Below, piece after piece: positions 1,661 through 63,801 of a stretch of 64,000 nucleotides of DNA. A program made the translations under genes and the position numbers. The DNA comes from Aplectana chamaeleonis (lineage: Eukaryota; Nematoda; Chromadorea; Rhabditida; Cosmocercidae). Under the pieces are notes generated by a model. It made no database searches and was not told where the DNA came from. It worked only from the letters and a program-made list of their open reading frames with translations. The first letter of the stretch is position 1. Every line of letters begins with the position of its first letter. Where the stretch lies: assembly GCA_029168955.1 (NCBI GenBank), contig JAPDOI010000287.1, forward strand, positions 124,001 to 188,000, given 5' to 3'.

Positions 1661-2420
1661 GCAGGACTGTGCGTAACAGAATTTTGTTAGTAAAAAGTTT
1701 TCAAATTCCTCGTAATTCGCAAATCGTAATTCACAAGGCCTGAGCAAAACCAAACCTTCCCAGCCAAGCGAAGACCACTCCAAGCTAATGTTTCCAGAGT
1801 AGTCCTCTGGAACGGAGGGTTTTGAAGCTAAAACCCTGGCACTGTCCATATCTGCCTGACAGCTACATAATAAAATGCAAAACGAGAGAAAATGGTTTGC
1901 GTTGGCTGGCCGTTCAAGCCAGCCTCTCCCACCGATGGAGCGCCTTACGTTGACGCAATATTTCGAACGATCCAAGCATGTGAGAACCCCAAATCGGTCG
2001 TGGTGAATAGGCCAAGATGGTGCTTTTGATAAAGTGTGCTTTCAAAGGTTGGTCATCAAAAAGAACTTTTAATGAAATGATGATTGTGCATTTCGATTAT
2101 TCGAAATTCAAAAATTCGAATATGCTCTTTAGAAGATCTTCGAATTTTGAATACTATTCGAAGTTTGTTTTCGAAATATTCGAATTTCGAATAGTATTCG
2201 AAAGTCTGTTTTCGAAATATTCGAGTTTCGAATATTAATCGAAACCGCTTCTTACGAAGTATTAGAATTTCGAATAGTATTCGAAAGCCCGTCTTCGAAA
2301 TATTCGAATTTCGAATAATATTCGAAAACCAAATTTTTCGAATTTTGAATGATTCGAAATTCGAAAAATCATTCGAACATTTTTCGAATAATATAATTCG
2401 GTCCGAAGTTTGAATAAGAC
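1637..2420 (-). repeat. Inverted copy of the 8.4-9.4 kb repeat
   Basis: Blocks here (GGTTGGTCATCAAAAAGAA, a TGATTGTGCATTTCGATTATTCG block, the GATGGAGC and TATTTCGAACGATCC blocks) match, in reverse complement and with divergence, the sequence at 8448-9420. The 2100-2410 part is the expanded TTCGAA minisatellite. Probably two copies of one dispersed repeat in opposite orientation. Confidence 0.55.
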
Positions 2421-2429
2421 CCAAATCAA

Positions 2430-5120
2430 CTTTGCCTTCGTTGAATAAGACCCAAATCAACTTTGCCTAAGAAAAATCACTCCTAAAATGATCTTAGAGT
2501 CTATTATATCTATATCTATCACTACTAAACACCTATAAGGCCGATTTGTCAAAATTCTCTATAGGTTTTTCACCCTATTTTGAAGATTCAACTAAAGATT
2601 TTGTATTCTTTTGGATAAGACGACAAACTAGAGAAGTTTATTATGGACTATCCATCACACTAGAGCTGTGAAATGAATTAGTCTTTTCCAAACACACTAG
2701 ACTAGTTTGTGTGACCAAGCTAGCTGTCTGTCGAACCGAAAGAAGCGGCTTATTTCGTTGTACACAAGTGGGTTGCCTATTCTGAAAAAGTACCGGAAAT
2801 TTTAAACAAAAAAAGTTGCTAAGCGAAAAAACCGTGCCGCCTATTCAGTATCGATTCGCCTAGGGATATCATTCCTCACCTCGGTAAAGCTGATTAACAA
2901 GAGTTGAACTCTATCTCCCAAGTATAAACTCCTCCAAAAAACACCAACTTTTGAGAATTTCAAGTTATTCGAATAATCGAATATTCAAAGAAGTGGAATA
3001 TTAGTTTATTCGAACAATCGAATATTCTAAGTAGTGGATTATTCGAATTATTCGTTTATTCGAATATTCAAAAAAATTATTCGTTCCAACACTCTAATGC
3101 ATACTGAACTTTCTTGACGGCAACTTGACACAAAAAAAATTTGCTGATAAGGTTCGGGAAGGAAAGCTCGGCACTGTGTTCCTGCACGTCATCTAATTGA
3201 TTCTTTTGAAGGCAAAGTTCACGATAATCTTCAATTTCGAGATTATCTGCTAAAACGAATGCTTGGCCCTAGATAGACCTGAAACGACGAAAAAAGTAAG
3301 AAAATCGCACCCAAAGTACGCGAGATCCTGTACTCTCACTATGCTCCAGTAATCTTAGTAGACCTGTTTATTGTGACAATGAAATCTTTTATGGAGCCGT
3401 CCACTGAAATTATCAGATCCCTTTTGCTCCGTTCTTTCTTTTGGACTTTAGCTATTACTGTTTCGCATAAAATATTCTTCTATTTTTACGTGACCCCACT
3501 TTTCTCCGATCGCAACCGCAGAGAACATGCTTATGCTACCGGACTACTACTTGAGGCCAGAGAATTATGTCACTGAAAAAAAGGTGTCTTACTTTCGCCG
3601 CTTCTTCCTGATTTCAGTAGCCTTTTGTAGCCAACGCGGTGTTTTTAGTTAGGAAATCGGTAACGAAAATCACTGTGAACACTGTCTCTAAGAAACGAAT
3701 GCAGAAGAGTGAGGCTCATATGAGCAGGAATTAGATTCACCATCAACATGATATTGGTACTGCTATACTTGAAAATATGCATGACGTTTTTATGCTTAGC
3801 CCAATTTATTCGCTTTCTAATTATCGAATGATGTGAATAACAAAGATGGATGTCAACTGTATTTCACAGATAAGCAGATGGATACAAACGCACTAGTTGT
3901 TTTGTCGTTCGGTGTGTAGGGTGGAGCACCAACGTAGCATTTAATAGATAGCAACAATATACTAATTAGAAATGATGAACAACAGTTGCCTTATATAAGA
4001 TGCTGGGTGCAAAGCACGGGAAGATGTCTAGGCTAATGTTGGGGAATTGAGAGAAGAGATATTGGGAGCAGACCGTCATTGCCAAAGTTCATAGAACATT
4101 CATTTGAACAGATTGCCTTGGGAGTTTACAGAGAACGTTGTCACGGGACCGTGTGCATTTGGCACACTGTGTAAATGATAAACGTTGTGTCGCATCGCTC
4201 GCCGCTGGAAGTATGATCCCGGCCTTAGGCCATTGTTATACCTCCAGTCTGCGACCGCGACAGGTTCGTTCATCAATAACGAATCGTGTCGGGACCCACA
4301 CTCTCACCTTGAAAAAAGCTGTCGCGTGAACACTGCATGCGCCGGTCGCTTTGCAGGGTTGGAGATGGGTGTTATACATTCAAATGTTAAAACCGTGCCG
4401 CAGTCGGTCGCTGTCGCGGACGTCGGTCGCAGTGTGACGCACTGTGACCGATGCCCGCGACAACGATGGAGTAATTGGTTAGGTGCGGGTTCCCCTTTTT
4501 TCCATCCTTTTTCGTAGTTCCTTTTTTCATTTCTCTCCTGGTGTCTTCACTTAGTCTTAGATGTATAGATCATAGTACCTGCCCCTTTATAAAACTGAAT
4601 TTAAACTGATTTGCCCTAAGATTCCGGGTTATTGATCCGAAGTCTTGTCTGCAATAGCGCGGGTGATGGCGCGTGTCAGACGTAACTTGGCGCGATGTAT
4701 GGCATAGCATACCATGGCCCTCAGCGACAGCGACGTCGCTCTCCTCTGCGACCACGACAGGGCTGAAGGAGAGTATAACAATGGCCTTCTTAGGCCCAGT
4801 CGAATTGAAGCTTTCACAATCACTGATACCATATTTTTAGAACCATTATTCACTACCTCTCTGAGTCAAGTTCTTCCAAAAATTTTATAAGTCTAGTATC
4901 GATTTTGTTGAGACGTCCATTATGGGAAAGAGAGAGAGACCAATCGGAATAGACTTGTTAGGCTCCAAAACAATTTAACCCGTCGCCTTTCGAGACGTCC
5001 AGAGCGATTAAAAATGCGCAGTTCTTGAACGACTTCATAACAGCTCTTCGATAGGCGAGTTCTTTGCGTCCACAATTCACAGTATGTAAAATCGACCATT
5101 GATGGATCATGATTTCCTTG
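2430..5120. other. No intact gene; minor repeats
   Basis: Contains a TTCGAATAATCGAATATTC-like stretch at about 2960-3080. At 3373-3560 there is a diverged plus-strand relative of the repeats at 16740-17095 and 22640-23010. Near 4380-4480 lies a GC-rich stretch of GTCGGTCGC/GCGACAACG words that can self-pair. No domain, splice-flanked exon or RNA gene was recognised. Confidence 0.35.
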
Positions 5121-8447: not shown

Positions 8448-9073
8448 TTTCGATTAATATTCGAAATTCGAATGTTTTGAAGAGCATATTCGAATTCTTG
8501 AAATTCGAGTAATCGAAATGCACAATCATAATTTTATTAGAAGTTTTTTTATCAACCTTTGAATGACCTATTCACCCCACGCCCGAGTTGATGTTCCCAT
8601 ACGCTTGGATCGTGTGAGATGTTGCGTCACCGATATTCGATTAATATTCGAAATTCGAATATTTTGAAGAGCATATTCGAATTTTTCAAATTCGAATAAT
8701 CGAAATGCACAATCATAATTTCATTAGAAATTCTTTTTTTTTTCTGATCAACCTTTGAAAACATTCTCTATCAAAGCACCATCTTGACCTGTTCACCCCA
8801 CGCCCGAGTTGAGGTTCCCATACGCTTGGATCGTGTGAGATGTTGCGTCACCGATATTCGATTAATATTCGAAATTCGAATATTTTGAAGAGCATATTCG
8901 AATTTTTGAAATTCGAATAATCGAAATGCACAATCATAATTTCATTAGAAATTCTTTTTTTTTTCTGATCAACCTTTGAAAACGTTCTCTATCAAAGCAC
9001 CATCTTGACCTGTTCACCCCACGCCCGAGTTGAGGTTCCCATACGCTTGGAACGTGTGAGATATTGCGTCACC
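8448..9073. repeat. Tandem repeat, about 221-bp unit, three copies
   Basis: Copies start near 8448 (shortened, about 184 bp), 8632 and 8853. Each runs from a TTCGAATATTCGAA block through AATGCACAATCATAATTT, CACCCCACGCCCGAGTTG and GTGTGAGATGTTGCGTCACC. Copies two and three are nearly identical; copy one is more diverged and internally deleted, which suggests stepwise duplication. Confidence 0.85.
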
Positions 9074-9483
9074 GCACAACGTGCTCCATCGGTAAGATAG
9101 GAGGGTGGATTGAACGGCAAGCCAATGCAAACCGTTTTTCTCTCTTTTCCGCATTTATTATGTAGCTATCAACCAGATCTAGACAGTACCAGGGTTATAG
9201 CTTCCGGGACCCTCTCTTTCCAGAGGAACAGTTACTTGAAAAACGAACGGGAGTGTTTGAGCTCACTAATCTATAATGACTATTCCGAGAATATCAGCTT
9301 TGAGAGGCTATTATGGGTTGTGTTTAGCGAATTTACGTCCATTTCTGTAGTTCCTGAGCTTCAGCGAATCCACCTAGCCGCGCCTTGGCGTAGTGTTAGG
9401 TCTTGGGAGCGGCGTTAGGGTTTCGGCGCTTGGGTGCGATAAGGCGCTTCCCCAGAAAGGGATAGTGGTGGCCACGTCTCGCC
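9074..9483. repeat. Continuation of the 1.6-2.4 kb repeat in opposite orientation
   Basis: Follows the tandem array directly and matches 1637-1980 in reverse complement with divergence (CATCGGTAAGATAGGAGGG, CAAACCGTTTTTCTCTC, TTATTATGTAGCTATC). No conserved frame was recognised. Confidence 0.45.
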
Positions 9484-23037: not shown

Positions 23038-23230
23038 TACTCAGACAATGGGGTAGACCGACCACGGGAGAGAAATCGTGTCTCGTACCGACCGCGTACC
23101 ATTATCGCACTGACCGCGTGCAAAAAATTTATTCCGTACCGAACGCGGTCATTTGCGTACTGACCGTGTCGCGAACGCGATGGAATTCATGGTCCCTAGC
23201 ACGATGCGAACGCATCATGCATGGACCGAC
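23038..23230. mobile_element. Truncated copy of the TACTCAGACAATGGGG MITE
   Basis: Starts TACTCAGACAATGGGGTAG and continues with GACCGACCACGG and iterated GTACCGACCGCG / GCACTGACCGCG, as at 14893. The matching right end was not found before the GCGNANTA-rich region begins. Confidence 0.7.
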
Positions 23231-24404
23231 CCACGGGTATGATAACCCTGGATAGCGGTGTGGATAACACCTAGAAGGATCTCACTAGATCCCTGGTTCC
23301 CCGGCCCACTATCGCGACGCATCGATGGCTACTATGCATCCGTCAGCTTGCCCCGTTACCGCAAGGTTATCTCGCAACCTGCTTCCCTCAAGCAGGCGGA
23401 GTCCTCGCGTTCACTGTGGATCACCTTGTCCACTAACCTGGGACAGCCGCACTAGCAAGCCACGAAACCCAACCAACATTTATGGGGGGGGGCAAGGGGG
23501 ATAGTCCCGCGTAGTACCAGCGTAATAGCACAACAACACAAGCCAACCATATTGACACCGATATAGCAGCGCTATACGAACACCAACACAGGTACAAGGT
23601 ACACAGTGGTAAGTTATAACCCTTTATCCTTAAGGCACTAACACCTAAAAGCATCTACAGGGTTCGCCTTACAGTTAACGGTTCAAATGGCTCACATCCC
23701 ACAGCGCGTAGTAGATAGCGTAGTCTACCACGGCGTAATATAGATTGCGTAGTACGTGGTGGCGTAGTATCGCACCTCTCCCTCTAGTCAACCGCACATC
23801 CCTAGCGGTGACTAATGCCAAAAGCCGTTGGGCCTCCGCCAACCTCCAGGCCGCTCGGTCTAGGCCGAGCTGGCGCCCAGATGCCAGCTTCCTCAGCAGC
23901 CAAGACTGCTGGGGACGGAGCCCACGGTTCCTGGATCTCCCGGTAGGCCTTCGCTGCCAGAGCAGCGCAGTACCAATGGGTACTGTAGGCCAACGCCATC
24001 CGGCGCCGGTCAGACCACTGAACCGAGGACAGCCGCCTTATAAAGGCAGCGCGGAGCAAGGGGGCAGGGCGCCGCGGCTGGCGCGGGCATGCCCCGCCTC
24101 CAAGCGGCTGGCGTAGTGGTGAACAGGCCGGGGCCTCACGGTCCGCCCCCAGCCACCGTCGCATCCGCGACACTCCCGACAACAAAAGAATTGCTGCCAG
24201 GGGCCGCAGAAGGCGGTGACAACAGGGGCAGGGCCACCGAGAGGACCCAATTAAGCGAAATATGAATTTACATAAAAAGGGGCAGCAAAAGTTATGCTGC
24301 GGGGATGAGCCAGCGTATTATGAACCCTCATACACACATTCTACCCTACCTAACGAGGCGAACCCTCTCACTCATAACAACGGCGAAATACTATGCAAAA
24401 TATA

Positions 24405-25400
24405 TACACGAGCCCTCATCAGAAACGGGCTTGAGGGGCATAAGTCCTCACCTCGAAAAGAACCGGAACATAAAAAATATATACATACAAGCCCTCAGCA
24501 GAAACGGGCTAGAGCGGCTTAAGGCCTCACCTCAAAAACAATATATACACTATATACAAGCCCTCATCACAAACGGGCTAGAGGGGCTTAAAAGCAGTGG
24601 TCGCGATCAAATATGCTTGTCGTCTTTTTCTCTCCAAATCCTTTCCTGGGTTTCGAGTAGTAGGACCTATAAGAAAAAATCGCGAAAAAACCACTGTTTT
24701 GGGCCAAATTTGAAACCTGAACTTTCTTGTCTTTTGGTGGTGGACGAGCCCTCTCCACATCATCGGCATCGATGACCTCTTATATCAAAAACATCAGCTG
24801 GCTTGAAATTGAATTCCAATCAATGTACCTTCGGATTTACGTACATATCTAGTCAAAAACATTGACTGAAGTGATGCTTTCATTACTCAACTGTTTTTAT
24901 TCGTTAAATTTGCATTTATTTCGTCCTCTGAATGTCGATGATTTTTGACTGCTCGGCATGAGACTGCGATCTGTTTCGTCATCGCTGTGCACGTGTGCAC
25001 GAACTAGCTTCTTCGGGCCCTAGAAACTCTATTTGTAAACCGTTTTTCACCGCGCTACCTTCATAGTTTTTCAGCTGTTTTCGATCTAAGCCGATTTATG
25101 TAGTTTTTTCGATAACGTTTTTCATCGTGACCACTGCCTTTAAGGCCTCACCTCAAAGAACAGCGAAATATACATGCCCTCGACAGAAACGGGCGAAGGG
25201 GGCTTAAGGCCGCACCTTAAAGAAAAGCGAAATACATACATGCCCTCAGCAGAAACGGGCGAAAGGGGCTTAAGGCCACACCTTAGAAATCAAGGGGCCT
25301 AAGGCCTCCCTCAAAAACCGGTAGATCAAAAACTAAAACTAAGACAAAACTACCTATGGCCCTCACTTGAAACGGGCGCGAGGGGCTTATGGCCTCACCT
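24405..25400. repeat. Tandem hairpin array (GCCCTCAGCAGAAACGGGC)
   Basis: About six copies (near 24408, 24491, 24558, 25171, 25235, 25357) of a 65-80-bp unit: hairpin GCCCTCAGCAGAAACGGGC, then GAGGGGCTTAAGGCCTCACC, then A-rich spacer, often with GCGAAATA. The four-base stem GCCC/GGGC is kept while the loop varies. The array is split by a MITE at 24589-25141. Confidence 0.85.
24589..25141. mobile_element. TTAA-flanked MITE inside the hairpin array
   Basis: Ends are AAGCAGTGGTCGCGATC and, inverted, AAGGCAGTGGTCACGATG. The array unit normally reads GGGCTTAAGGCC. Here that TTAA is present on both sides of the insert, giving a TTAA target duplication. About 550 bp, no transposase frame. Termini resemble those of MITE families 1 and 2. 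Confidence 0.8.
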
Positions 25401-26144
25401 CTAGAAGCTCACACAAAACATGAGCTACAACATAAACGCAGCGAAATAAATGTGAAAAAATTCAAGACTAAAAACTAGACGAAACTAAACTAAATAGATC
25501 ACAAATTATTTACAAGCCTTCTTGCGATGCCATCAGGCATACCATGGTTGACCCATCCGTCGTATATAGGGAATATATATCCATCTAGTCGACCATATAG
25601 CATGCCATCCATTTGAGCGCCACAGATCCATCAGAATACCATGACGCATCCAACCAGGCATCTCGAAGGCGTATTAGGCGGCAAATCGATCTGGAAGTAA
25701 TCGGATAGAAAACGAGATAAAAAAACGTGTGTAAATTTGCCACCAGCGTAGTATGACCTAGCAACGAAGTCCAGGCCAGAGCGAAATAAGTCTGACGTGA
25801 GTAGATCAGACCTGCGTAGTAGAGTCTGCCTTAGTGGTCTAGACTGTAAAAACGTATTAGTTAGTCAGCCACTAGGAACAAGACTAAGCGTATTAGCTAG
25901 TGTATTTCAGCACAGCACAAGGTGGTCGTACTGAGCGTATTGTGGTTATTACTAACCCGCGTGATAACAAGATTAAACCATGCGTATTCAAAACGGCGTA
26001 CTATAGCAAGCCACGAAAATGGCTATACCTGCGTATTACGGTTAATTACAACTAACCAGCGTATTCAAAGCGGCGTATTAACCAGGTGTGAACATGCGTA
26101 TTAGCTGCGTCTTAACGCAGGCGTATTAGCGCCTGCCGCTACGG

Positions 26145-26945
26145 TCATCTCCCCTGCGCCCTGCGTTCAGAGGGTGACCGATGTCGGTTTTGGCGGCGAT
26201 TGGCGTCGCGTCGATTGCGCGACTGCGAGTGCGGAGTACGGACCCTAAGTCCAGGCGGATTAGGGCGAAACGTCTCACGAGCTAAATCCTCGTAAAAACG
26301 CTGGGCCGTCGTATTAATGTTTGCGATTACAAACGGGTTATCTACGCACACAGTCTGGTGGTGACCTGTCCGGTGACAGAAAAGGCATCTGTCGGCCCGT
26401 ATACAGTGCCCTGTGTGACGTCGTGGACAAATCGAGCATAGCTCGCTGTCAACGAGCATATCAGCCCGTTGCAGCAAGCGCCTGGGCGTAATACACTCAG
26501 CGGAATAATGCCCTCTGCCGGAGCAGAAGACACAGGGCTGCTGCCCTTCTGGCGGAGTACGTTGACGAGGAGGAGGATGCGCCCGCTGGCTGCTCCTCGC
26601 CCCGTCTGCGGAATACTGCGTACTAGGACGAGATCTGAGCGTACTAGGCTGATCCTGGAACCGACCTGTACTTGTTCCTCTGTCGCGTTTACGTTGCGTA
26701 TTATTGCTGGACCCTGGTCCATCCTCCCGACTTCGAGGCGAATGCCTGTCGCGGGATGATGGAGCAAGTACAGACCTTTGCGTAGTGAATTGCGAATTTC
26801 GAGATCGAGACGAAGACGCGGTTGAGCGTCTCTCGAATTGCGTATTTCGAGAATCGAGCGAAATAGACGACTCTGAGTCGTTCTCAAGAGGTCTGGAAGC
26901 AGCTTCCAGAGCACACTTGCTGAACGTCAATGGAGCCGTCTGCAA
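26145..26945 (-). CDS. BEL-like Gag C-terminal part with zinc knuckles
   Basis: 266-residue frame. The N-terminal two thirds are Ser/Arg/Gln-rich and low complexity. Around residues 137-205 come three Cys/His knuckles: CVFCSGRGHYSAEC, a variant CSICPRRHTGHC, and CLFCHRTGHHQTVC. This triple arrangement, with a charged spacer between the first and second knuckle, is typical of BEL/Pao Gag nucleocapsid domains that bind the element RNA. The C-terminal tail is Arg-rich. It lies 17 bp past the upstream gag frame in a different frame, so either a frameshift or programmed slippage separates them. No protease or RT follows. Confidence 0.7.
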   Translation of the reverse strand: MQTAPLTFSKCALEAASRPLENDSESSISLDSRNTQFERRSTASSSRSRNSQFTTQRSVLAPSSRDRHSPRSREDGPGSSNNTQRKRDRGTSTGRFQDQPSTLRSRPSTQYSADGARSSQRAHPPPRQRTPPEGQQPCVFCSGRGHYSAECITPRRLLQRADMLVDSELCSICPRRHTGHCIRADRCLFCHRTGHHQTVCVDNPFVIANINTTAQRFYEDLARETFRPNPPGLRVRTPHSQSRNRRDANRRQNRHRSPSERRAQGR

Positions 26946-26962
26946 AGTCGGTAGCGAATTAG

Positions 26963-28723
26963 TTAGCGTACTTTGTTGCGGAGTACTCTGCGCAGTGTTT
27001 TGCGCAGTATTTGGCGAGAAAGCCTGCGTAGTATTACAGTATTTTGCGTATTTGCTGTGAACCGTCTCTCGTAGAAACTGTCGAGAAATATTCGTCCCTG
27101 TCTGTGATTCATAACAGTGCTATATCTATCTCTCCACATTTCGAGTGTGCGATTGAACCAAGCATAAGTGGTCTCAAGCTCCACCGGAGGCGGAGGAGGT
27201 GCCTCGCGGAGGTGCTGAGGCGCTTCGACTTGATCGCGACCCTCGACTGTGGCCAGCATGCGTAGTTGTTGTCCTTCAAGAATCCGGACATAGCGAATTA
27301 TTATCGCCACGATGGCAGATGAGCGTACTAGATTCGTGCGAACGAAGTCTGGCGTCATATGGAACCTTGCGAGCGCATTAAGGAAATTTTGGCGAGTCTG
27401 ATGCTCTTCCAGCACGTGTGGAAGCATCTCTTCTTGAAGAATATCCCGATGAACTGTGATAGCGGTAATGCCATGCATCAGTTCCTGGATCCAGGCAGTG
27501 GGCTCGACATAACTCACTGCCCAAGGTTTACTGAGCGGAATAGCGTCGGCGAGGTCTCGAATGAGCCCTACGCTTTCACGCGTAGTAACCTGGATCAGGT
27601 TTAGCGAATGAAGTAGTCGAGAAACCGACATGCGTATTCGATCAGCCATACCAGGAGCTGTGGACTGAGGTTCACGCGGAATAGGTTCTTCAGAGTAGTT
27701 TTCGATATGCTCGAAGATACTGCGTAGTTGAATAGCTGTGAGTTCTTCAACAATGTGAAGACTCACAAACTGCGAACTAAACTGCAATACCGGCGGAAGC
27801 GGAATGACATCCGGAGGTGCGGTATTTGCCATGATAGGCGGGCAGTTTTCTGGCGTAATAATTTGAAATGACGGATCAGGGACCCTGCTGGTGCTGGATA
27901 TGCGTCCGTAGTCCTGCGCAATACGTTGCTTGTGCTGTTCGTAGGCCTTGCTCAAACGATTTGCAACGTTGCGAAGTATATTTCGATAATCGTCCATGGT
28001 TTGCGTCCGGGGATGAGAAGTTACCTCCAGAGGCTCACCAGGAGTCTCACCGAGATATCGCGTAGTATGAGAAGCGGAGTAATCCGCAGCTCCAGCGGCC
28101 GTCGGCGCAGTAGAAGCATTGCCTTTGGCTGCCGGAGGTGCAGGCTGCTTGAAGCAGGAGCGTATTTTCTTCGTCTTCCTGACGGTACGCGTAGTAGTCG
28201 TCGTTGCACCGGATTGCGGTGTCTGAGACGACTCAAGCTTAGTTTCAGACGTGGTTGTCTGAGGCGTATTAACAGACTCAGTTGGAGTCTGCTGCGAAGT
28301 AATAGACTGGGTGACAGTCATGGATTCCAGAGGCGTATTAGACGAGTCTGTGTCTGCAGTGGAGACGACAGTCGTCTGCGTAATAGTGGTGGAATTCACC
28401 TGCGAATTAGACAAGGAATCAACTTCCATCGGCTCGACAGGCGTATTCGCCATCTCATCAGCCCTCAACCCCAATTGAGGCGGTGGAACTGTGAAGTCGA
28501 CTGGTGCTGAATGGACGTAATCCTGCTGCGATTCTTCGACGTGAACGTCTTCGAGCGAAATAGTGGAAAACATCGGGAAGACCGATGTCAGCGGATTAGT
28601 CTGCGTAGTAGACTGCGTATTAGGCTGCGTATTAGAGCCTCCATCGTCGTCGACAGAACGAGAGGTCGAAGCAGAACGAGACCGCTCCGACTTCTTTGAA
28701 GACGAAATCGATGGTCTGGGCAT
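26963..28723 (-). CDS. BEL-like Gag, main frame
   Basis: 586-residue frame starting at an ATG (MPRPSISSSKKSERS). Residues 1-200 are Ser/Thr/Gln/Asn-rich, partly because the DNA word TANTNCGC (GCGNANTA on plus) is repeated and reads as NTQ/TTQ. Residues 200-230 are basic (RKTKKIRSCFKQP). The remaining 350 residues are alpha-helical in character with no domain I can name. The position upstream of the knuckle frame supports a Gag role. The last 30 residues are an Arg/Leu repeat created by successive motif copies, suggesting the true frame shifts into the next ORF there. Intact for its length; no obvious transposase-like or host domain. Confidence 0.6.
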   Translation of the reverse strand: MPRPSISSSKKSERSRSASTSRSVDDDGGSNTQPNTQSTTQTNPLTSVFPMFSTISLEDVHVEESQQDYVHSAPVDFTVPPPQLGLRADEMANTPVEPMEVDSLSNSQVNSTTITQTTVVSTADTDSSNTPLESMTVTQSITSQQTPTESVNTPQTTTSETKLESSQTPQSGATTTTTRTVRKTKKIRSCFKQPAPPAAKGNASTAPTAAGAADYSASHTTRYLGETPGEPLEVTSHPRTQTMDDYRNILRNVANRLSKAYEQHKQRIAQDYGRISSTSRVPDPSFQIITPENCPPIMANTAPPDVIPLPPVLQFSSQFVSLHIVEELTAIQLRSIFEHIENYSEEPIPREPQSTAPGMADRIRMSVSRLLHSLNLIQVTTRESVGLIRDLADAIPLSKPWAVSYVEPTAWIQELMHGITAITVHRDILQEEMLPHVLEEHQTRQNFLNALARFHMTPDFVRTNLVRSSAIVAIIIRYVRILEGQQLRMLATVEGRDQVEAPQHLREAPPPPPVELETTYAWFNRTLEMWRDRYSTVMNHRQGRIFLDSFYERRFTANTQNTVILRRLSRQILRKTLRRVLRNKVR

Positions 28724-29350
28724 CTCAACGAGTAACCAGTAACTGAAATGAATACAAATCAGTAGTGGTTCGCGTATTTATAGCGTAGTATAAGGTTAAG
28801 ATGACAAATGATAGAGATTAGCGAAGTAGGTTAGCGATAACTGAGAGCTGCGAAGTAGGCAAGCGAAGAATAAGACGGATCGAGTGACTGACGATCGATA
28901 CCGTCTGCCGAGTAGGTGGAGTCGACTGTCATCGGTTGGCTGCGTGCCCGAAAAGGTCCTGCGGTGATTTTGCAGGCACGGGACTCTTTCGCAACCACCA
29001 CGACTACGAGGCCGTGCGAGAACGAAAGCGAACTAGGGGAAATCGTCGAGGACGACGATTTCCACATAAAATAACGCGCAGTAGGTGTCTGGGAAAGACA
29101 CCTGCGAGGAGGGAAGCGAAGTAGGTGTCAGAAATGACACCTGCGAGGGAGAGAAAAAACATAGTAGGTGCCTGGAAAAGGCACATTTAAAGCGGAATAC
29201 ACATAATGCGCAGTAATTAAGCGTAGTAAGTGTCGAAAATGACACCTGCGAGGTAGGAAAAAACGTAGTAAGTGCCCGAAAAGAGGCACGTTTAAGCGAA
29301 ATACTTAATTTGCAGAGTAATTTAGCGTAGTAGGTGTCGACTAGCGACAC
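28724..29350 (-). repeat. Leader or LTR-like region with hairpin array
   Basis: Lies between an integrase tail (upstream on minus) and the gag start, where an LTR plus leader would be. It has no coding frame of note. 29038-29410 is an array of short perfect stems separated by GCGNANTA words: an 11-bp stem at 29038-29063, 8-bp stems at 29083-29103 and 29123-29142, then GTGCCT/AGGCAC, GTGTC/GACAC, GTGCC/GGCAC and GTGTCG/CGACAC. LTR boundaries could not be fixed because no second copy is in the window. Confidence 0.55.
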
Positions 29351-29351
29351 T

Positions 29352-30116
29352 CTAATGCGAAGTAGAGCGCTTAGCGCTCCTACTCGGCTGAAACCGAGTG
29401 GGTTTAGGCGTATTAGGACGTCGATTTTTGACGTTTTTGGACCGAAAATGGTCGTTAGACGGCGTAGTAGGTGGAAAAATCGTGTCGATTTCCGGCGTAA
29501 TAAGCTGAATTCTAAATCTCTGGAGGTGGTTATTCTTTCCGACTCGTAATTGAGCGGATCGAATATGACCGTCTCCAGATTTCTTCAGCTGCGTAATTAC
29601 TCCCAAGAGCCATACGGTTCGAGGCGTATTATCCTGTTTGATTATCACAACTTGTCCCACTTGAGGGGTCAAGCGTGAATGTTGAGCGGATTTAGACTTT
29701 TTCTGTGCACGTTCGGCTAAGGACTGGAGATAATCCTGTCGCCAAACGGTCCAGAAATGGTCTAGCGTATTCAGAAGAGCGTAATATTCACTCTTTAGGA
29801 ACTTTGCAGTTTCCGAGTCGCGTATTTCACTGTTCACAAACTGCGAGTATTTTGAACTAGAACTGGCAAGGATCTGTCCCAGTGTGAACTGCGGATTAAT
29901 GAGGTCTATAGGCCGTAGCGTACAGATCGCTTCAGGCGTATTACTTGCGTTGACCGGAGTTAATGGTCGTGTATTTATGACTGCTTCGATCTCGACAATT
30001 AGTGTCTCGAGCGATCGAAGGTCGAGCGTACTTCGTCGGATTGTCTTTTTTAGAGACAATTTGACTGTGCCGACGAGGCGTTCGTAGAACACTGAGAGTC
30101 TGGACGGCCTAGACAT
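29352..30116 (-). pseudogene. BEL integrase C-terminal fragment plus DUF5641-like domain
   Basis: 254-residue frame. It begins near the third catalytic position of a BEL integrase (VFYERLVGTVK contains the expected Glu), continues through VINTRPLT and LRPIDLINP, which are standard BEL integrase C-terminal landmarks, and through the WRQDYLQSLAER and GQVVIIKQDN segment of the DUF5641-like tail that precedes the stop. The first two catalytic Asp residues and the zinc-binding domain are absent. It follows the RNase H fragment after an internal deletion, so it cannot be functional. GCGNANTA motifs run through it as well. Confidence 0.8.
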
Positions 30117-30149
30117 CCCTGGAGAGGTGGGTTCTAGCGTATTAAGGAT

Positions 30150-30398
30150 TCACGAAGGAATCTTTCGCGTAATATTGACGGAGTAAAATTTGCTTTCAAT
30201 TTTTGCCTGAGCAAAAATTTCAAGCACGGAATGAATCTGCTGTATGCGATTCGCGATAAAGGTTTTCGTTGGTCGCTTGGAATGGATCCAATGAAGCGTA
30301 ATAAGTGAGTCTGAGAAGATTCTCACCGTCGTAATAGCGATTTTCAATTCCTTAAAGGCACAATCCAAGCTGTGGGAGGAAATCTGAGATTTCCACAT
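30150..30398 (-). pseudogene. BEL RNase H-region fragment
   Basis: 82-residue frame with VRIFSDSLITLHWI, the SDS-x-x-x-LxWI signature of the BEL RNase H-like/connection region, then TKTFIANRIQQI as in pol of this family. Normally several hundred residues lie between this point and the integrase tail; here only about 35 bp separate them, so the zinc-binding domain and integrase catalytic core are deleted. The 5' side is cut at about 30400, where unrelated repeat DNA begins. Confidence 0.7.
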
Positions 30399-30399
30399 A

Positions 30400-31440
30400 A
30401 TTGTGAAGTGGACCCACCCTATATAACACCTGCCAGGTGCGAGCTCTCAATTCCTCCGAATAAACTAGATATAGGTGGAAGCCACCCTGGGGTGCCCACA
30501 TCCGGAAGCCACCTTGGCACGCCCCTTTTACGATCTTTCAAGCTCAACAGTGGCGAGATGAGCGATGGTTTCCTATCAAAAGCCCCGTTCTTCCCTTCAT
30601 TTTCAACTACACTCCTTGTCCAGGTAGGCTCGCACACATTGGTTGCAAATTACGAAAGTTACAAAGCTCAGACAACTCGTGCACTCTGCTTCCGTAGCTC
30701 AAATTGCCAAACACTTACCCGAGTACCGGAGATCCATTCCGAAAAGAGGTGTACTTATAAAAGAGGTGTACTCCAAATAGAGGGTGTAATTCTAATACTC
30801 AGCCTTCCCTTTTAGGTGTACTTTTATTAGAGGTGTACTTCAAATAGAGGTGTACTTCTATTGGAGGAAATACGGTATATGATACCTTTTCTTGAATAGT
30901 AAAAGAACAGTAATTAATATCACAACTACGATGCGTCTTCTGATGCGGATTCATTCAAAGTCTTTTCAAAGGGTGATGTTGTTGGGTCGCACGTCGTGGT
31001 CCGTTGATATCAGGATGCGACTCGTTTGCGTATTAAGTTCTGGAAGCACAAGTCACACTATAATATTCAAATATTATTGTGTAGTAGATCCCTACTGTAT
31101 TAAACGCGCCAAGTGCAAGAGCTCAATTCTTTCAAATAAGTGAGATATAGGCGACCACCACAGACCCGACCCCCACCGCCCACCAACACAGGCCACACCT
31201 CGTTCCTGATTTTCTGACTCAATAGTGGCTAGAAGGATGGGTGAATTTGACCGTAATCGTCGTTCTTCCCTCCATTGCCGGCTTGTCTCCTCATTTTGGT
31301 TCGCTCTCGTACAGCGACTGCGAATGAAGAGAAATGCAGACCCGAGAAAACTCGTACACGACATTGTTGCACTCAAAATTTAAGCATTTTCGAGGAACCA
31401 TAATTCCGCTTGAAGGGGACCTTGAACGACTTCAGAGTTA
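30400..31440. repeat. Two related repeat copies sharing the MITE-2 core
   Basis: 30425-30720 and 31100-31400 are diverged direct relatives (GCGAGCTCTCAATTCCTCCG versus GCAAGAGCTCAATTCTTTC; both then enter GATATAGG and the roughly 170-bp core with GTTCTTCCCTTCATT or CATTG). Between them are AGGTGTACTT repeats (30750-30865). One GCGTATTA motif is at 31027. No coding capacity. Confidence 0.55.
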
Positions 31441-34836: not shown

Positions 34837-34838
34837 TA

Positions 34839-35830
34839 AGCCACTGCGTGTCGAACGCTGAAATTCCCCGGTACGGTAGCGGACAATCGCGTCGGGACCA
34901 ACTCCGCATAAAATGCATGACGCGCGCAGAATTGTGTGATTGGGGCGCGCTTGCGCAAACTCAACATTGCGACTGGGTTTTGTTCCGTTTTCCATAACCT
35001 TTGTGTAACAATTGGTGTACCGCCAAGATCGCAGCGTGTCCCAGTCGAAACTTGCTGGAATAATTAATCCGCTTACATACATTCATGCGTTTTTTGGTGT
35101 TTGGGGAATTTAGTTGCCACAGAGCTTACTGCGGGTTATGTTGCGGAATCAAAAGTGGGTTTTATAAAGTTTTGGTCCAAAACGCAATGTTTAACATTGA
35201 TAGTGCAAGCATATTTATACTCCTAATGTTCCTGCTTGAGAACGATCTCAATATTCTCGAGGAAATCACAACAGCGAGCCCGGTATTGGGAACTGGAAGC
35301 GACGACACCGACTTGATACATGATTCCGAAAGATGAGAGCGAAGTGTTTAGTGTCCCTATTCTCCCCATTACAGAAAAGAAGAAAAAAATCCATCCTTGT
35401 GGATGGTCGAAGCTATCAACTCATCAAAATTGCACATGAGCAAAATCACTTATTGCAGAATATTTTTGCTTCCAGCTGACGTTTGGGAGAGATGAGCGCG
35501 ACATGCAGAAAAACTTGAAGCATCTGTACTGGAATGTTCGGCAGCACATTGATTTTGATAACTACGGATTGTGAATAGGGGTACACAACAGGTTGTCCAC
35601 TCTAAAAACAACGATTTTATCGCAACAGTCCAAATCCTTAACATCACCATCACTGACAACGACTTTTCATCCAGCTTTGCATTCGATGACGTGCCAAGTA
35701 TTATCAATTCGGCACCAGCGCGCCCCATTCGCACAATTCTGCGCGGGTCATGCATTTGTATGCTGAGTTGGTCCCGACGCGGTTGCCCGCTACCGTACCG
35801 GGGAATTTCAGCGTTCGACACGCAGTGGCT
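34839..35830. mobile_element. Long-TIR element, about 1 kb, TA flanks
   Basis: Arms of about 125 bp (34839-34965 and 35708-35830) are inverted copies beginning AGCCACTGCGTGTCGAACG, then GGTACGGTAGCGG. TA flanks both ends (34837-34838 and 35831-35832). Interior frames have no transposase signature, so the element is non-autonomous. TA flanks are compatible with a Tc1/mariner-like or similar TA-targeting family. Confidence 0.8.
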
Positions 35831-35832
35831 TA

Positions 35833-61384: not shown

Positions 61385-62080
61385 CTAGCTTGCACCTGGA
61401 ATATTGGATATCCGTGACATGTTGATTTTTTTCAGCTTTTTCTTGAAAACGATTTTGTTTTCCGCCACGAACACGTCAAGTGGCAATTGTCGGATCCAAC
61501 GCGCGCAACAATAGAAGAAGATGTTGAACATTTGGTTTCTCCTTCTGCTCCCCAACGTAGCACAATGGATGGCAAATCTGGATAGTCTAGAGCTCGAAGG
61601 CATAAATGTCCAGTACTTTCCCGCGCGTAATTTTACTTGCCTTTTAAGAATGCGGAAGCACAACAACAAATCAGAAAAAATTGTCCTCTTTTGTAAGGAA
61701 ATCAGTGAAAAAATGCTTCAAGCGTTCGGTATAACTAGGCAAAGAGTCACGATCAGAATTTATGCATTTAAGCCACAGAACTCGGGTGAAAAACTGTTGA
61801 ACTTTCTCGATTTTAGAGATTTCTTTTTTTGAGAAATGGGCCCCACAAAGGTGAACAATAATCCAGATGAGGCATGACTGGGAAATCATAGAGACGTGTC
61901 AAAATTTCTGCGTCAGAGCACTTAATGTTTCTAGGCAACATTAGCGATGTAGCATATGCTTCTTTAATGGTCTTGTCAATGTGGTCAGAGAAGTCGAGCT
62001 TTGAGTTGAGATGAACTCCAAGGTCTTTGCTAGAGTCACAACCAGAGCACATAATCGTAACAACATTGACTTGGATTTCA
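61385..62080 (-). pseudogene. Non-LTR (CR1/Jockey-like) RT C-terminus, inserted
   Basis: Three fragments in three frames. 62085-61813 has KDLGVHLNSKLDFSDHI and MPHLDYCSPLWGP; 61889-61671 has ISKIEKVQQFFTRVLW; 61669-61385 has RFAIHCATL and a Lys-rich C-terminal stretch. This order (DLG-x, LxYCSPxW, IExVQ, RxxxRNxxxFxxFxxLP-type end) is the conserved post-RT region of CR1/Jockey-like elements. The 5' end is truncated exactly at the BEL junction near 62080, the pattern of an incomplete target-primed insertion. Confidence 0.8.
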
Positions 62081-63801
62081 GGCAAAATAGCTTTTACTGG
62101 AGCCGCTGTCGAGGAATACCATTGCCAATGTTGATTTCATCGGGTCGTCAGGATTGAATACTTCGACATCCGTACACATTAGGAGTACACACTTCGTACC
62201 TGTAGAACCATGGTTGGAAGCCACGACAGCGTTGTCATTTTGGGATTGCGTGGATTTTTGCTTTGGCGGGCTTGGTGTGGATCGATCCTGAAAGCAATTT
62301 TCTGTCGTAAAGTGTACCTGTGCACGTTTCCTTGTGAAGTCTTCCGTCGAGCTTGGAGGCGAAGAGGAAGGTTTGAAAGATTTTGGGGATGTTGTTGTTC
62401 GAAGACATAGTGATGAGTGGTGGCGTTTGGAGCAAACCTGACACAGTTTCTTCGACAGGCAATCCTTGGTTCGATGTCTGGTGGACAGGCAGTTGTAGCA
62501 CAATTTCTTATCTTTGACAATCTGGATCCGGAGTCTGGATGATTCGAATTTCGTGCAGCTAAACACATTGTGGTTGGTGGAGCCGCAGAAACTACATGAG
62601 AGAGATTTGGATAAAGGTTGGTTTGGAATCCTCCTGTGTGGCCAAGAGCGAGAGGTAGAATCGGATGGTGGTGGCTTCTTGGGTAACTTGAGCAGACCGA
62701 CGTAACTTTCGTATTTTTGTACTGAACGGTTGCAGTGAAACTCAATTTCTTGGAGTGTAGCTTCTTTGTGAACTATGTCCGTCAGCACGTGCAGAAGTTC
62801 TGAAGGTGTAAGATTGTGCCAGTTATTGGTCCTGTCATAGATCCTGCTGCGAATGTGACGTGGGAGTTTATTGAGTGAAATCGCACCAAGGGCTACTTCA
62901 TTGGAGTCGTCTTCATACGAGCAGAACTGACGAGTCAGTGAATACATCTTATTGTACAATGATTGTAGATGTTTGCCGTCAGGGTCGCACTGAGGTAGAT
63001 TGGCGAGTTGAGTGAAGAGGATATGGCGGGTTGTAAATCTATCGTCGTAACGCGATTTGAGTATGTTGAGGGCAATGTGATAGTTGTGAGCGGTTATTGC
63101 GAGCCCTTGAATGGAGTGAAGGGCGCGGCCTTTGCGGCATGACTTCAGTAGTGAAAACTTCGTAGCTTCATCTAACTGCGTCTTATTGCCAATTAGGGCC
63201 GAAAATCGGGTGAAGAATTCTGGATACTCCAATAAGTTACCATCAAAGGTAGGTAAATCCAACCTACTCAAAATTGAAGCGTCTACGAAATTCCTGGTTG
63301 TGATATCGGTACCTGAGTTGGAGTGAGCTTGTTTGGGAGCAAGAGGATGCGGTGCAGTTGCGTGTTCAGAGCGGCTGAGCTGATGTGCACGTGGTTTTGT
63401 AGACATCTCTTCCATATCAAGTAGAATGGGTAAATTTCGGTTTTTGCATTCCAGATCGATTGCGTTCAGAATGTCGTCTGCGTTGTCCAGTGAAGTGTCA
63501 GCTTCTTGAACTGTAGTTGCGTAGTCGCCGTACTTCTTCACGTATTCGTGGCACACAGTCTCCTCTTCTGGGTCTTGCTGTCTTGCGTTGAGCCATTCAG
63601 CATGAAGTTGCTGGATTTTTGAGTAAGACGTGTGTAGGTAACCCCGGGCTTCGAGAAATTCGCTTTTGAAGTCAAGGAGATCGTCGTTGCTCAATTGCTT
63701 AAGGTTTGGTTGTTTGAAGTCAACTGCGAAGTCTTGAAGAATTTCAGTGTTGATGTCACATTGCTGTTGTATCCTCTTCTTGATGATACCGATGTGCCGA
63801 C
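62078..63801 (-). pseudogene. BEL Gag with start of protease
   Basis: The frame is open from the hAT junction at 63801 down to a stop at 62078 (the non-ATG codon at 63694 is not a real start; the true start lies beyond the insertion). Order: helical N-terminus, the DUF1759-type Gag domain (LDLPTFDGNLLEYPEFFTRF to LANLPQCDPDGKHLQSLYNK), three knuckles (CSFCGSTNHNVFSC, CYNCLSTRHRTKDC, CQVCSKRHHSSLC), a Ser/Pro/Thr linker, then VFLDSGSSKSYF, the protease catalytic motif. It is cut at that point by the non-LTR insertion. Apart from the two insertions the frame is uninterrupted, so gag has decayed less than pol. Confidence 0.85.

What the first reader, a model, noticed from the sequence alone, without database searches (positions are those of the whole stretch)
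23500..30400. A roughly 7-kb chain of GCGNANTA words alternating with short hairpins, through coding and non-coding DNA
Seen directly: the 8-mer GCGNANTA (GCGTATTA, GCGTAGTA, GCGAAATA, GCGGAGTA, GCGCAGTA and others) occurs about 80 times by my count, nearly all in one orientation; six fixed bases predict about two per strand in 7 kb. Intervals between words usually hold a short perfect stem, for example GTAGA..TCTAC, GCTCGG..CCGAGC, CAGCAG..CTGCTG, AGTACC..GGTACT, CTGCGT..ACGCAG, AACCT..AGGTT, AATTTTTGC..GCAAAAATT, or a stem with the word in its loop (AGTCTGCGTAGTAGACT, GCGGAGTAATCCGC). The pattern ignores gene boundaries: it runs through both gag frames, the leader, the integrase tail and the non-coding 3' part, and it skews protein composition (NTQ/TTQ repeats, an Arg-rich gag end). 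Inference: either a small hairpin unit has proliferated inside this retrotransposon, like the palindromic elements known from Rickettsia genes or GC clusters of yeast mitochondria, or RNA/ssDNA structure and a protein-binding word are under selection. I know of no described BEL element with this architecture.
Basis: partly seen in the sequence, partly recalled or inferred. Interest (0 to 1): 0.88.

Follow-up and report, generated by a model that had tools for sequence, protein, structure and literature searches.

The report
Family-specific RNA words along nematode retrotransposons
A jumping gene in what is probably a nematode genome carries one sharp eight-letter word about every 90 letters, on one strand and through genes and non-coding DNA alike; related jumping-gene families in the same genome carry the same word with a different ending, which looks like a selected identity code written along their RNA.

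Summary
The window holds a 5'-truncated BEL/Pao retrotransposon on the minus strand (23167-30355). Its sense strand carries TANTNCGC (GCGNANTA on plus) 83 times against 2 antisense. A fuller copy in this 1.04-Gb genome has 143 in 13.2 kb against 4.4 expected, 3 antisense; single-letter variants are rare except at the first letter.

Words exceed synonymous-codon shuffles in all nine frames tested. In integrase they arose by substitution in place. Their fixed letters, but not the free ones, vary less between copies. They stop at the LTR ends. In three other copies, though not the window's, they are more exposed than shuffles predict, relative to the whole, and in the two tested sit just 3' of short hairpins.

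A further family shows no clear word.

I read this as a family-specific RNA recognition code under selection, most likely bound by the element's own zinc-knuckle proteins to package its RNA. The selected word is well supported; reader and function are inferred. Mobile hairpin units are not supported.

The parts
23167..30355 (-). 5'-truncated copy of a BEL/Pao LTR retrotransposon; 83 sense TANTNCGC words, 2 antisense
   Evidence: homologous copies L011-L024 at about 89-96% DNA identity in the long aligned pieces
23167..24172 (-). 3' LTR (TGTCGCGG...CGCGACA), 7 words
   Evidence: LTR pair seen in C1337 (L031:2029-3040 and L013:7172-8184, 97%); ends and 5-bp duplication GGTAG in C1337; word count
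24173..26144 (-). region 3' of the third ORF, without an assigned gene, 16 words; holds six copies of a 67-nt repeat (24393-25406)
   Evidence: no Pfam match; zinc knuckles read by eye
28724..29351 (-). inter-ORF region with hairpin-then-word array, 11 words; tandem repeat 29114-29340 (104-nt unit)
29352..30116 (-). tail of integrase with DUF5641 (PF18701), 8 words; an inner stretch present in several other copies is missing near its 5' end
23509..30303 (-). the chain of 83 TANTNCGC words (GCGNANTA on +)
   Evidence: one search lists every position

Best explanation
Shown: the word TANTNCGC is spread at about one per 92 nt over one BEL/Pao family, almost only on the sense strand, from LTR to LTR, through coding and non-coding parts. 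It is kept by selection on nucleotides, and other BEL families in the genome use the same TANTNC core with another ending (AG or A; GT). Inferred: the word is read as single-stranded RNA (UANUNC plus a family suffix) in the genomic transcript. Short hairpins between words, best seen in this family, help keep words unpaired. A multivalent reader binds dozens of words along one RNA, so that the element's own transcript, and not that of a neighbouring family, is recruited. Most likely reader: a zinc-knuckle protein of the element (Gag, or the third ORF that follows integrase in these families), with RNA packaging or assembly as the function; one knuckle could read the constant half and another the family-specific half (speculation).
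For: Word count and sharpness: 143 against 4.4, antisense 3; single-letter variants 0-7 against 3.1-5.5 expected except at position 1 (A 24, C 12, G 19). Protein-preserving shuffles: gag1 27 against 4.3, RT 15 against 1.6, INT 27 against 3.05, ORF3 N part 27 against 2.5; 0 of 1000 shuffles reach the observed count in any of 9 frames (some are the same gene from two copies). Edges: no word in 2028 nt before and 1717 nt after the element. Conservation among 14 copies: word kept 0.91 against 0.77 for permuted CG words; diversity at the six fixed letters 0.0317 against 0.0528 matched (lowest of 2000 draws 0.0363), at N letters not reduced. Family code: AG in L028 (pol 24 against 2.7, ORF3 13 against 1.4), GT in L029 (8 against 2.3; 11 against 2.1; shuffle max 7 in both), CA in L030 (16 against 5.1, max 11), without clear cross-enrichment. 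L028 to L030 at 72.7% identity: TANTNCA kept 14 of 30 against 21 of 108 permuted, P 0.003; reverse 14 of 22 against 20 of 110, P 4e-5. Exposure in L013: words unpaired 0.41 against 0.27 for permuted words; word minus whole 0.161 against 0.101, sd 0.018, with spacers shuffled. Hairpin directly 5' of the word 18 against 1.4. Stem arms vary less (0.035) than loops (0.051); 12 of 16 double changes restore pairing, at 6 distinct pairs, against 1-4 of 6-13 in shifted controls. The GC chain occurs at 320 places genome-wide against 47 for the reversed pattern.
Against: G-U against A-C changes in stems (98 against 73 cells, 49 against 46 events, 0.95 expected) do not settle which strand folds. Absolute exposure of words in L013 (0.414) and L022 (0.405) lies inside the shuffle range (max 0.426, 0.410); only the contrast with the whole is clear, and the window copy shows none. 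Words overlap stem arms less than slid positions do (8 against 17.8) but more than in spacer shuffles, which have fewer hairpins (8 against 3.8). The hairpin link is clear only in this family: word just 3' of a hairpin is 3 against 1.7 in L028, 0 against 0.4 in L029, 2 against 0.7 in L030. The sixth letter (C) shows no lowered diversity under either control, nor the last C under the trinucleotide control. L025-L027, the nearest sampled relatives by integrase, have a third ORF too but no TANTNC word. L028, L029 and L030 rest on one 9.9-kb stretch each. L029 has a second enriched word nearly as strong (GTNGCGNNG 27 against 1.8, antisense 4; GTCGCGNNG leads with 7 fixed letters). In L030 the AG suffix alone is weak in pol (5 against 1.7, shuffle max 6). 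The reversed control of the AG chain is nearly as frequent as the chain (195 and 228).
Confidence: 0.5

Rival explanations
1. A host RNA-binding protein reads the words in the sense transcript and the element exploits it (export, translation, stability, or shielding from small-RNA silencing); different families have adapted to different paralogues, hence the suffixes.
For: Same strand, density, unpairedness and selection data. Small RNAs antisense to LTR elements are dense in strongylid nematodes (PMC13195028, passages only), so pressure on these transcripts is plausible.
Against: Family-specific suffixes without clear cross-enrichment fit self-recognition better than one shared host factor. 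L025-L027 lack the word.
Confidence: 0.25
2. The words are DNA or cDNA signals: sites for a DNA-binding protein, or sites used during reverse transcription or integration.
For: LTRs carry words as well (7 each); the folding bias is equal on both strands (mean z -1.43 and -1.40); the G-U test is neutral.
Against: 143 sense against 3 antisense is hard to explain for double-stranded sites; words are unpaired when the sense strand is folded.
Confidence: 0.1
3. A small hairpin-plus-word unit has proliferated inside the element, like Rickettsia palindromic elements or mitochondrial GC clusters.
For: Word-bearing tandem arrays exist at 29114-29340, 28591-28636 and 25140-25285, and L013 and L016 show self-matches.
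Against: Most words in integrase align codon by codon to relatives, there is little shared flank beyond the 8 letters, one-mismatch variants are not in excess beyond position 1, and spacing is near random (CV 0.94 against 0.98).
Confidence: 0.04
4. By-product of protein repeats (NT, TQ) or of codon and dinucleotide bias.
For: In eight of nine frames 74-93% of words start at codon position 3 (8 of 15 in RT), giving N/T/I/S - T/S/P/A - Q/H/L/P/R.
Against: Shuffles that keep the protein and codon usage give means of 1.2-4.3 against 8-27 observed, and shuffles that also keep junction dinucleotides 1.6-7.1, with every maximum below the observed count; non-coding parts and LTRs carry words in the same orientation.
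Confidence: 0.02

Closest known systems
BEL/Pao LTR retrotransposons (Belpaoviridae), nematode branch
   Same: LTRs with TG..CA ends and 5-bp target duplication in copy C1337; DUF1759 gag in C1337, DUF5641 in the window, and Pao peptidase A17, RT, integrase zinc finger and DUF5641 in relative L028; best-scoring named protein relatives in strongylid nematodes
   Different: Two observed copies are 12.6 and 13.15 kb against 4.2-10 kb in the ICTV profile (PMC8742986, whole text); a third zinc-knuckle ORF follows integrase; a family-specific word every ~90 nt. The ICTV profile mentions no such word.
Multiple dispersed packaging signals of RNA viruses (MS2 and others)
   Same: Many short RNA sites, linked to stem-loops, spread over the genome (PMC6281560, passages)
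   Different: Those sites are stem-loops with loose loop motifs such as (x)xYA; here a sharp 8-letter word with 6 fixed letters, 143 in one copy, often beside rather than in the loop, and with a suffix that differs between families. Protein binding is not shown here.
Rickettsia palindromic elements and yeast mitochondrial GC clusters (recalled, and named in the finding)
   Same: Short palindromes running through coding and non-coding DNA
   Different: Those are inserted units (recalled); here most words in integrase arose by substitution in place.

Membership tests
BEL/Pao retrotransposons (Belpaoviridae) | LTR direct repeats and target-site duplication | tested here: met
   C1337 copy: LTRs of about 1.0 kb, 97% identical, TSD GGTAG. 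The window copy keeps only the 3' LTR.
BEL/Pao retrotransposons (Belpaoviridae) | Pol of the Pao type | tested here: met
   DUF5641 in the window's integrase tail; Peptidase_A17, RVT_1, Integrase_H2C2 and DUF5641 in relative L028; the RT part of this very family was not scanned
BEL/Pao retrotransposons (Belpaoviridae) | Gag with DUF1759, 5' of pol | tested here: met
   L031:4366-6636 in copy C1337; absent from the truncated window copy
BEL/Pao retrotransposons (Belpaoviridae) | Genome 4.2-10 kb with gag, pol and at most env | tested here: not met
   about 12.6 and 13.15 kb in two copies; the third gene is a zinc-knuckle protein without Pfam match. A range in a profile, not a strict definition, so the filing as BEL/Pao stands.
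BEL/Pao retrotransposons (Belpaoviridae) | tRNA primer-binding site after the 5' LTR | tested here: inconclusive
   TGG follows the LTR; no tRNA was matched
Dispersed RNA packaging signals | Many copies of a recognition motif spread over the genome | tested here: met
Dispersed RNA packaging signals | Motif presented in a stem-loop context | tested here: inconclusive
   L012, L013 and (exposure only) L022: yes; window copy: no extra exposure; L028-L030: no clear hairpin adjacency
Dispersed RNA packaging signals | Capsid or Gag protein binds the motif and packages the RNA | not testable with these tools
   needs binding experiments
Mobile palindromic units (Rickettsia palindromic elements and the like) | Sites created by insertion of a unit | tested here: not met
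   in integrase, 22-26 of 27 words have every codon aligned in the four best-covered relatives

The most novel reading that the evidence does not exclude
BEL/Pao families of this worm write a family-specific address along their whole RNA: a constant half (UANUNC) and a family suffix (GC, AG/A, GT), repeated many times and read by the element's own proteins, so that co-resident families do not package each other. A change of suffix would be a change of identity, as in a lock-and-key system. Elements that lack part of the coding region could use the code in trans: loci at C42:2852049-2861502 and C39:2540225-2549866 hold word chains of LTR spacing at both ends and a diverged gag, but no integrase tail or third ORF was listed there.
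Probability: 0.35. Interest if true: 0.93.

Novelty: new variant of a known kind. Interest (0 to 1): 0.87.

Why it matters
How retroelements pick their own RNA among thousands of transcripts is largely open, and the known signals that I recall are few and local. Here is a natural experiment: related elements in one genome, a sharp word repeated many times in each, and a suffix that differs by family. The specificity code, its reader and its evolution become testable with simple binding assays. It would also be a case in which RNA-level selection reshapes protein sequence (the NTQ repeats) across whole genes.

Tried and rejected
Mobile hairpin units, protein or codon bias, and chance were tested and set aside. 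Folding-energy z-scores did not separate word-bearing L013 (-1.43) from word-free L025 (-1.43); L029, which bears the GT word, had -0.35. The G-U against A-C test of which strand folds was neutral. Rfam and tRNA scans of the window found nothing. One scan of the viral contig collection gave no relative. The protein search with the window's third ORF gave no match. The family L025-L027 was searched for another word: CNNCANCGCNG, 12-13 against about 0.65, and a plain excess of CGC on the sense strand (209 against 70 in L027), which I do not call a word. In the longer stretch of L025 GTGTGNA scored 50 (26 against 1.5, antisense 3), but not in its first 6000 nt. The structure of the third ORF (6-row alignment, mean pLDDT 46; a long-helix bundle at about 320-480 with 15 of 16 ten-residue blocks at 71-91) matched nothing at E <= 0.001 in the PDB or viral libraries. 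Papers: the listings of searches showed none on such words (63 listed 15 of 141 papers, 64 15 of 16, 93 10 of 144); 92 looked for the word itself (3 listed papers, not opened; the titles concern microbial ecology after a tsunami, a citrus virus RNA and metabarcoding). I read PMC8742986 whole and passages of PMC3118150, PMC6281560 and PMC13195028. Not answered: the GT chain search, a search with the LTR and an RT search for the C42 and C39 loci. Row dropped: L024 was left out of the conservation counts because its stretch holds a second copy in reverse. In one search the mean for L027 could not be computed. The AG chain gave 228 places but its reversed control 195, unexplained; I rest the AG word. 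only waited.
Full report
What the thing is. The stretch 23167-30355 of the window, read on the minus strand, is a 5'-truncated copy of a BEL/Pao retrotransposon. It has an integrase tail with DUF5641 (29352-30116), a hairpin-rich gap, a third ORF in two frames (26145-28723), a region without an assigned gene and a 3' LTR (23167-24172). The window lies in a genome of 1.04 Gb. A search with the integrase tail gave 150 rows there: 39, the window's own included and some being pieces of one copy, at 72-100% identity, and 111 at 34-58% (a capped list). The best-scoring named relatives of a related pol (L028) among public proteins are strongylid nematodes: Ancylostoma, Trichostrongylus, Necator, Haemonchus, Cylicocyclus (120 of 390 shown). 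The host is therefore probably a strongylid nematode (inference).

Fuller copies show the plan. In contig C1337 two LTRs of about 1.0 kb, 97% identical, enclose an element of 13.15 kb, flanked by the 5-bp duplication GGTAG. Order: LTR, leader, gag with DUF1759, pol, then the third ORF, then the 3' LTR. A copy in C65 spans 12.6 kb with its 5' LTR clipped. It has zinc-knuckle motifs (read by eye), no Pfam match, and two public homologues, both from Ostertagia ostertagi, in a search with the L028 protein; a search with the window's own frame gave none. C1337 shares with the window copy an inner gap in the pol region.

The word. GCGNANTA on the plus strand is TANTNCGC on the element's sense strand. 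In 23500-30400 it occurs 83 times against 2 in the other orientation; in the rest of the window 8 and 9. In C1337, counted over two pieces, it occurs 143 times in 13,155 nt against 4.4 expected, with 3 antisense, and is the top word of an exhaustive scan of gapped words with six fixed letters. Variants with one fixed letter changed occur 0-7 times each, near or below the 3.1-5.5 expected, except at position 1 (A 24, C 12, G 19). At the free positions A, C and T are favoured over G at position 3, and A over T over C over G at position 5. Decaying relics would leave many near-misses; a recognition word would not.

It marks the whole element and stops at its ends: for example LTR 7, leader 6, gag 27, integrase frame 17, third-ORF frame 37, LTR 7, and none in 2028 nt before or 1717 nt after. 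The 13 stretches L011-L023 show the same: 57-101 sense against 2-5 antisense in 9.9 kb each; L024, which holds two opposed copies, has 70 and 56. Genome-wide, chains of three GC words occur at 320 places against 47 for the reversed pattern; the first 100 were listed, many at known copies, others at places with the 37- and 64-nt spans that the LTR words give.

It is selected at the nucleotide level. Shuffling synonymous codons, with protein and codon usage kept, gives means of 1.2-4.3 words where 8-27 are seen in nine frames (some of them the same gene from two copies); 0 of 1000 shuffles reach the observed number in any of them. Keeping junction dinucleotides as well raises the means only to 1.6-7.1, with every maximum below the observed count. 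Among 14 copies the word is kept at a rate of 0.91 against 0.77 for permuted CG-bearing words (111 loci) and 0.75 for all permuted words (754 loci). Diversity at its six fixed letters is 0.0317 against 0.0528 for positions matched by base and codon position (lowest of 2000 draws 0.0363), while the two free letters are not reduced. The sixth letter (C) alone shows no reduction, and the last C none under the trinucleotide control. In integrase 26, 24, 23 and 22 of 27 words have every codon aligned in L027, L030, L028 and L029 (17 in L025 and 8 in L026, which are aligned over less), and those relatives have 0-6 of the six letters there, so most words were made by substitution in place (an insertion in the relative inside a word would not show).

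Structure. With sense-strand folding the words of L013 are unpaired at 0.41 against 0.27 for permuted words. With words held in place and spacers shuffled, the excess of word over whole is 0.161 observed against 0.101 (sd 0.018) in L013, 0.159 against 0.098 (sd 0.017) in L022, 0.160 against 0.088 (sd 0.022) in L012, but 0.119 against 0.109 (sd 0.019) in the window copy; the absolute exposure of the words in L013 and L022 stays inside the shuffle range. Perfect hairpins are in excess (63 against 21.9 in L013, 56 against 20.6 in L012) and words lie directly 3' of them (18 against 1.4; 14 against 1.6). Words overlap stem arms less than slid positions do (8 against 17.8), though more than in spacer shuffles (8 against 3.8). 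Stem arms diverge less (0.035) than loops (0.051) and the rest (0.043); 12 of 16 double changes restore pairing, at 6 distinct pairs, against 1-4 of 6-13 in shifted controls. Against this: folding z is as strong in word-free L025 and on the antisense strand, the G-U test is neutral, and L028-L030 show no clear hairpin adjacency, though L028 and L030 have a hairpin excess (40 against 25.7; 36 against 17.3).

A family code. The same blind scan on other BEL stretches of this genome gave, as top words, TANTACA in L028 (69 against 2.3, antisense 3), TANTNCGT in L029 (28 against 1.8, antisense 0) and TANTNCAG in L030 (31 against 2.3, antisense 2), with scores of 169, 51 and 52. Shuffles stay at 8.5-15.1; window tiles reach 16, or 39 where there are repeats, so L028 stands far out and L029 and L030 less so. 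In L029 a second word, GTNGCGNNG, scores nearly as high (48), and leads when seven letters are fixed. The 16-suffix table shows one main ending per stretch: GC 99/3 (sense/antisense) in L013, AG 58/3 in L028 (with AT 13, AA 12, AC 7), GT 30/0 in L029, AG 31/2 in L030 (with AT 11, AA 10, AC 6). Codon shuffles support the own word, without clear excess of the others, in eight frames; the weakest is L030 pol, where AG alone gives 5 against 1.7 (shuffle max 6) but CA 16 against 5.1 (max 11), and L029 pol, 8 against 2.3 (max 7). Between L028 and L030, at 72.7% identity, TANTNCA is kept at 14 of 30 and 14 of 22 sites against 21 of 108 and 20 of 110 permuted words. The family L025-L027 (89-94% alike), with a third ORF too, has no TANTNC word, only an excess of CGC on the sense strand (209 against 70 in L027). 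A second BEL gag in the window (62078-63694, DUF1759) also lies in a region without such a word.

How it most likely works. A sharp word, mostly single-stranded, almost only on the sense strand, spread over the whole transcript and family-specific, is what one expects of a site read in RNA by a multivalent protein that must tell its own transcript from a relative's. The element's own zinc-knuckle proteins are the natural candidates and packaging the natural function; this step is inferred. A host reader is the main rival. The loci C42:2852049-2861502 and C39:2540225-2549866 carry chains of LTR spacing and pieces of a diverged gag (41-86%) but were not among the listed integrase-tail or third-ORF matches (lists are capped, and the letters were not seen). 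If they prove to be elements without pol that keep the words, a function in cis served in trans would be favoured.

Novelty. As an element it is a BEL/Pao member. The word system has no counterpart in what I read: the ICTV profile (whole) and passages on dispersed packaging signals; the listings of searches showed none. I file it as a new variant of a known kind because dispersed packaging signals are a fair analogue; if the suffix code is shown to be read by each family's own protein, it would be a new kind.

Noticed in passing
26145-28723 and loci L025-L030: A third ORF with zinc-knuckle motifs follows integrase in these BEL families (whole in L028 and L029, a piece in L030); public homologues found only in Ostertagia ostertagi (P0121, P0122). 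Predicted long-helix bundle, no fold match.
   Followed up: partly
L025-L027: Nearest sampled family by integrase has no TANTNC word but a strong sense-strand excess of CGC (209 against 70 in L027) and a weak CNNCANCGCNG.
   Followed up: partly
L029: Besides TANTNCGT a second enriched word, GTNGCGNNG or GTCGCGNNG (27 against 1.8, antisense 4; 23 against 0.8, antisense 1); nature unknown.
   Followed up: no
G000:C42:2852049-2861502, G000:C39:2540225-2549866: GC word chains with LTR-type spacing at both ends and a diverged gag, but no integrase tail or third ORF among the listed matches: possible elements without pol.
   Followed up: partly
whole genome, AG chain pattern: The reversed control of the AG three-word pattern has 195 places against 228 for the pattern itself; cause unknown.
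   Followed up: no
62078-63694: Another BEL gag (DUF1759) on the minus strand, in a region without such a word.
   Followed up: partly
24393-25406: Six copies of a 67-nt repeat in the 3' region, five of them 66-84% identical to the sixth.
   Followed up: no
2139-3072 and 8564-9074: TTCGAA-rich tandem repeats and a 221-bp tandem repeat of 2.3 copies.
   Followed up: no
34837-34913 and 35756-35832: Inverted repeats of 77 nt, 95% complementary, 842 nt apart; could be ends of a small DNA element.
   Followed up: no
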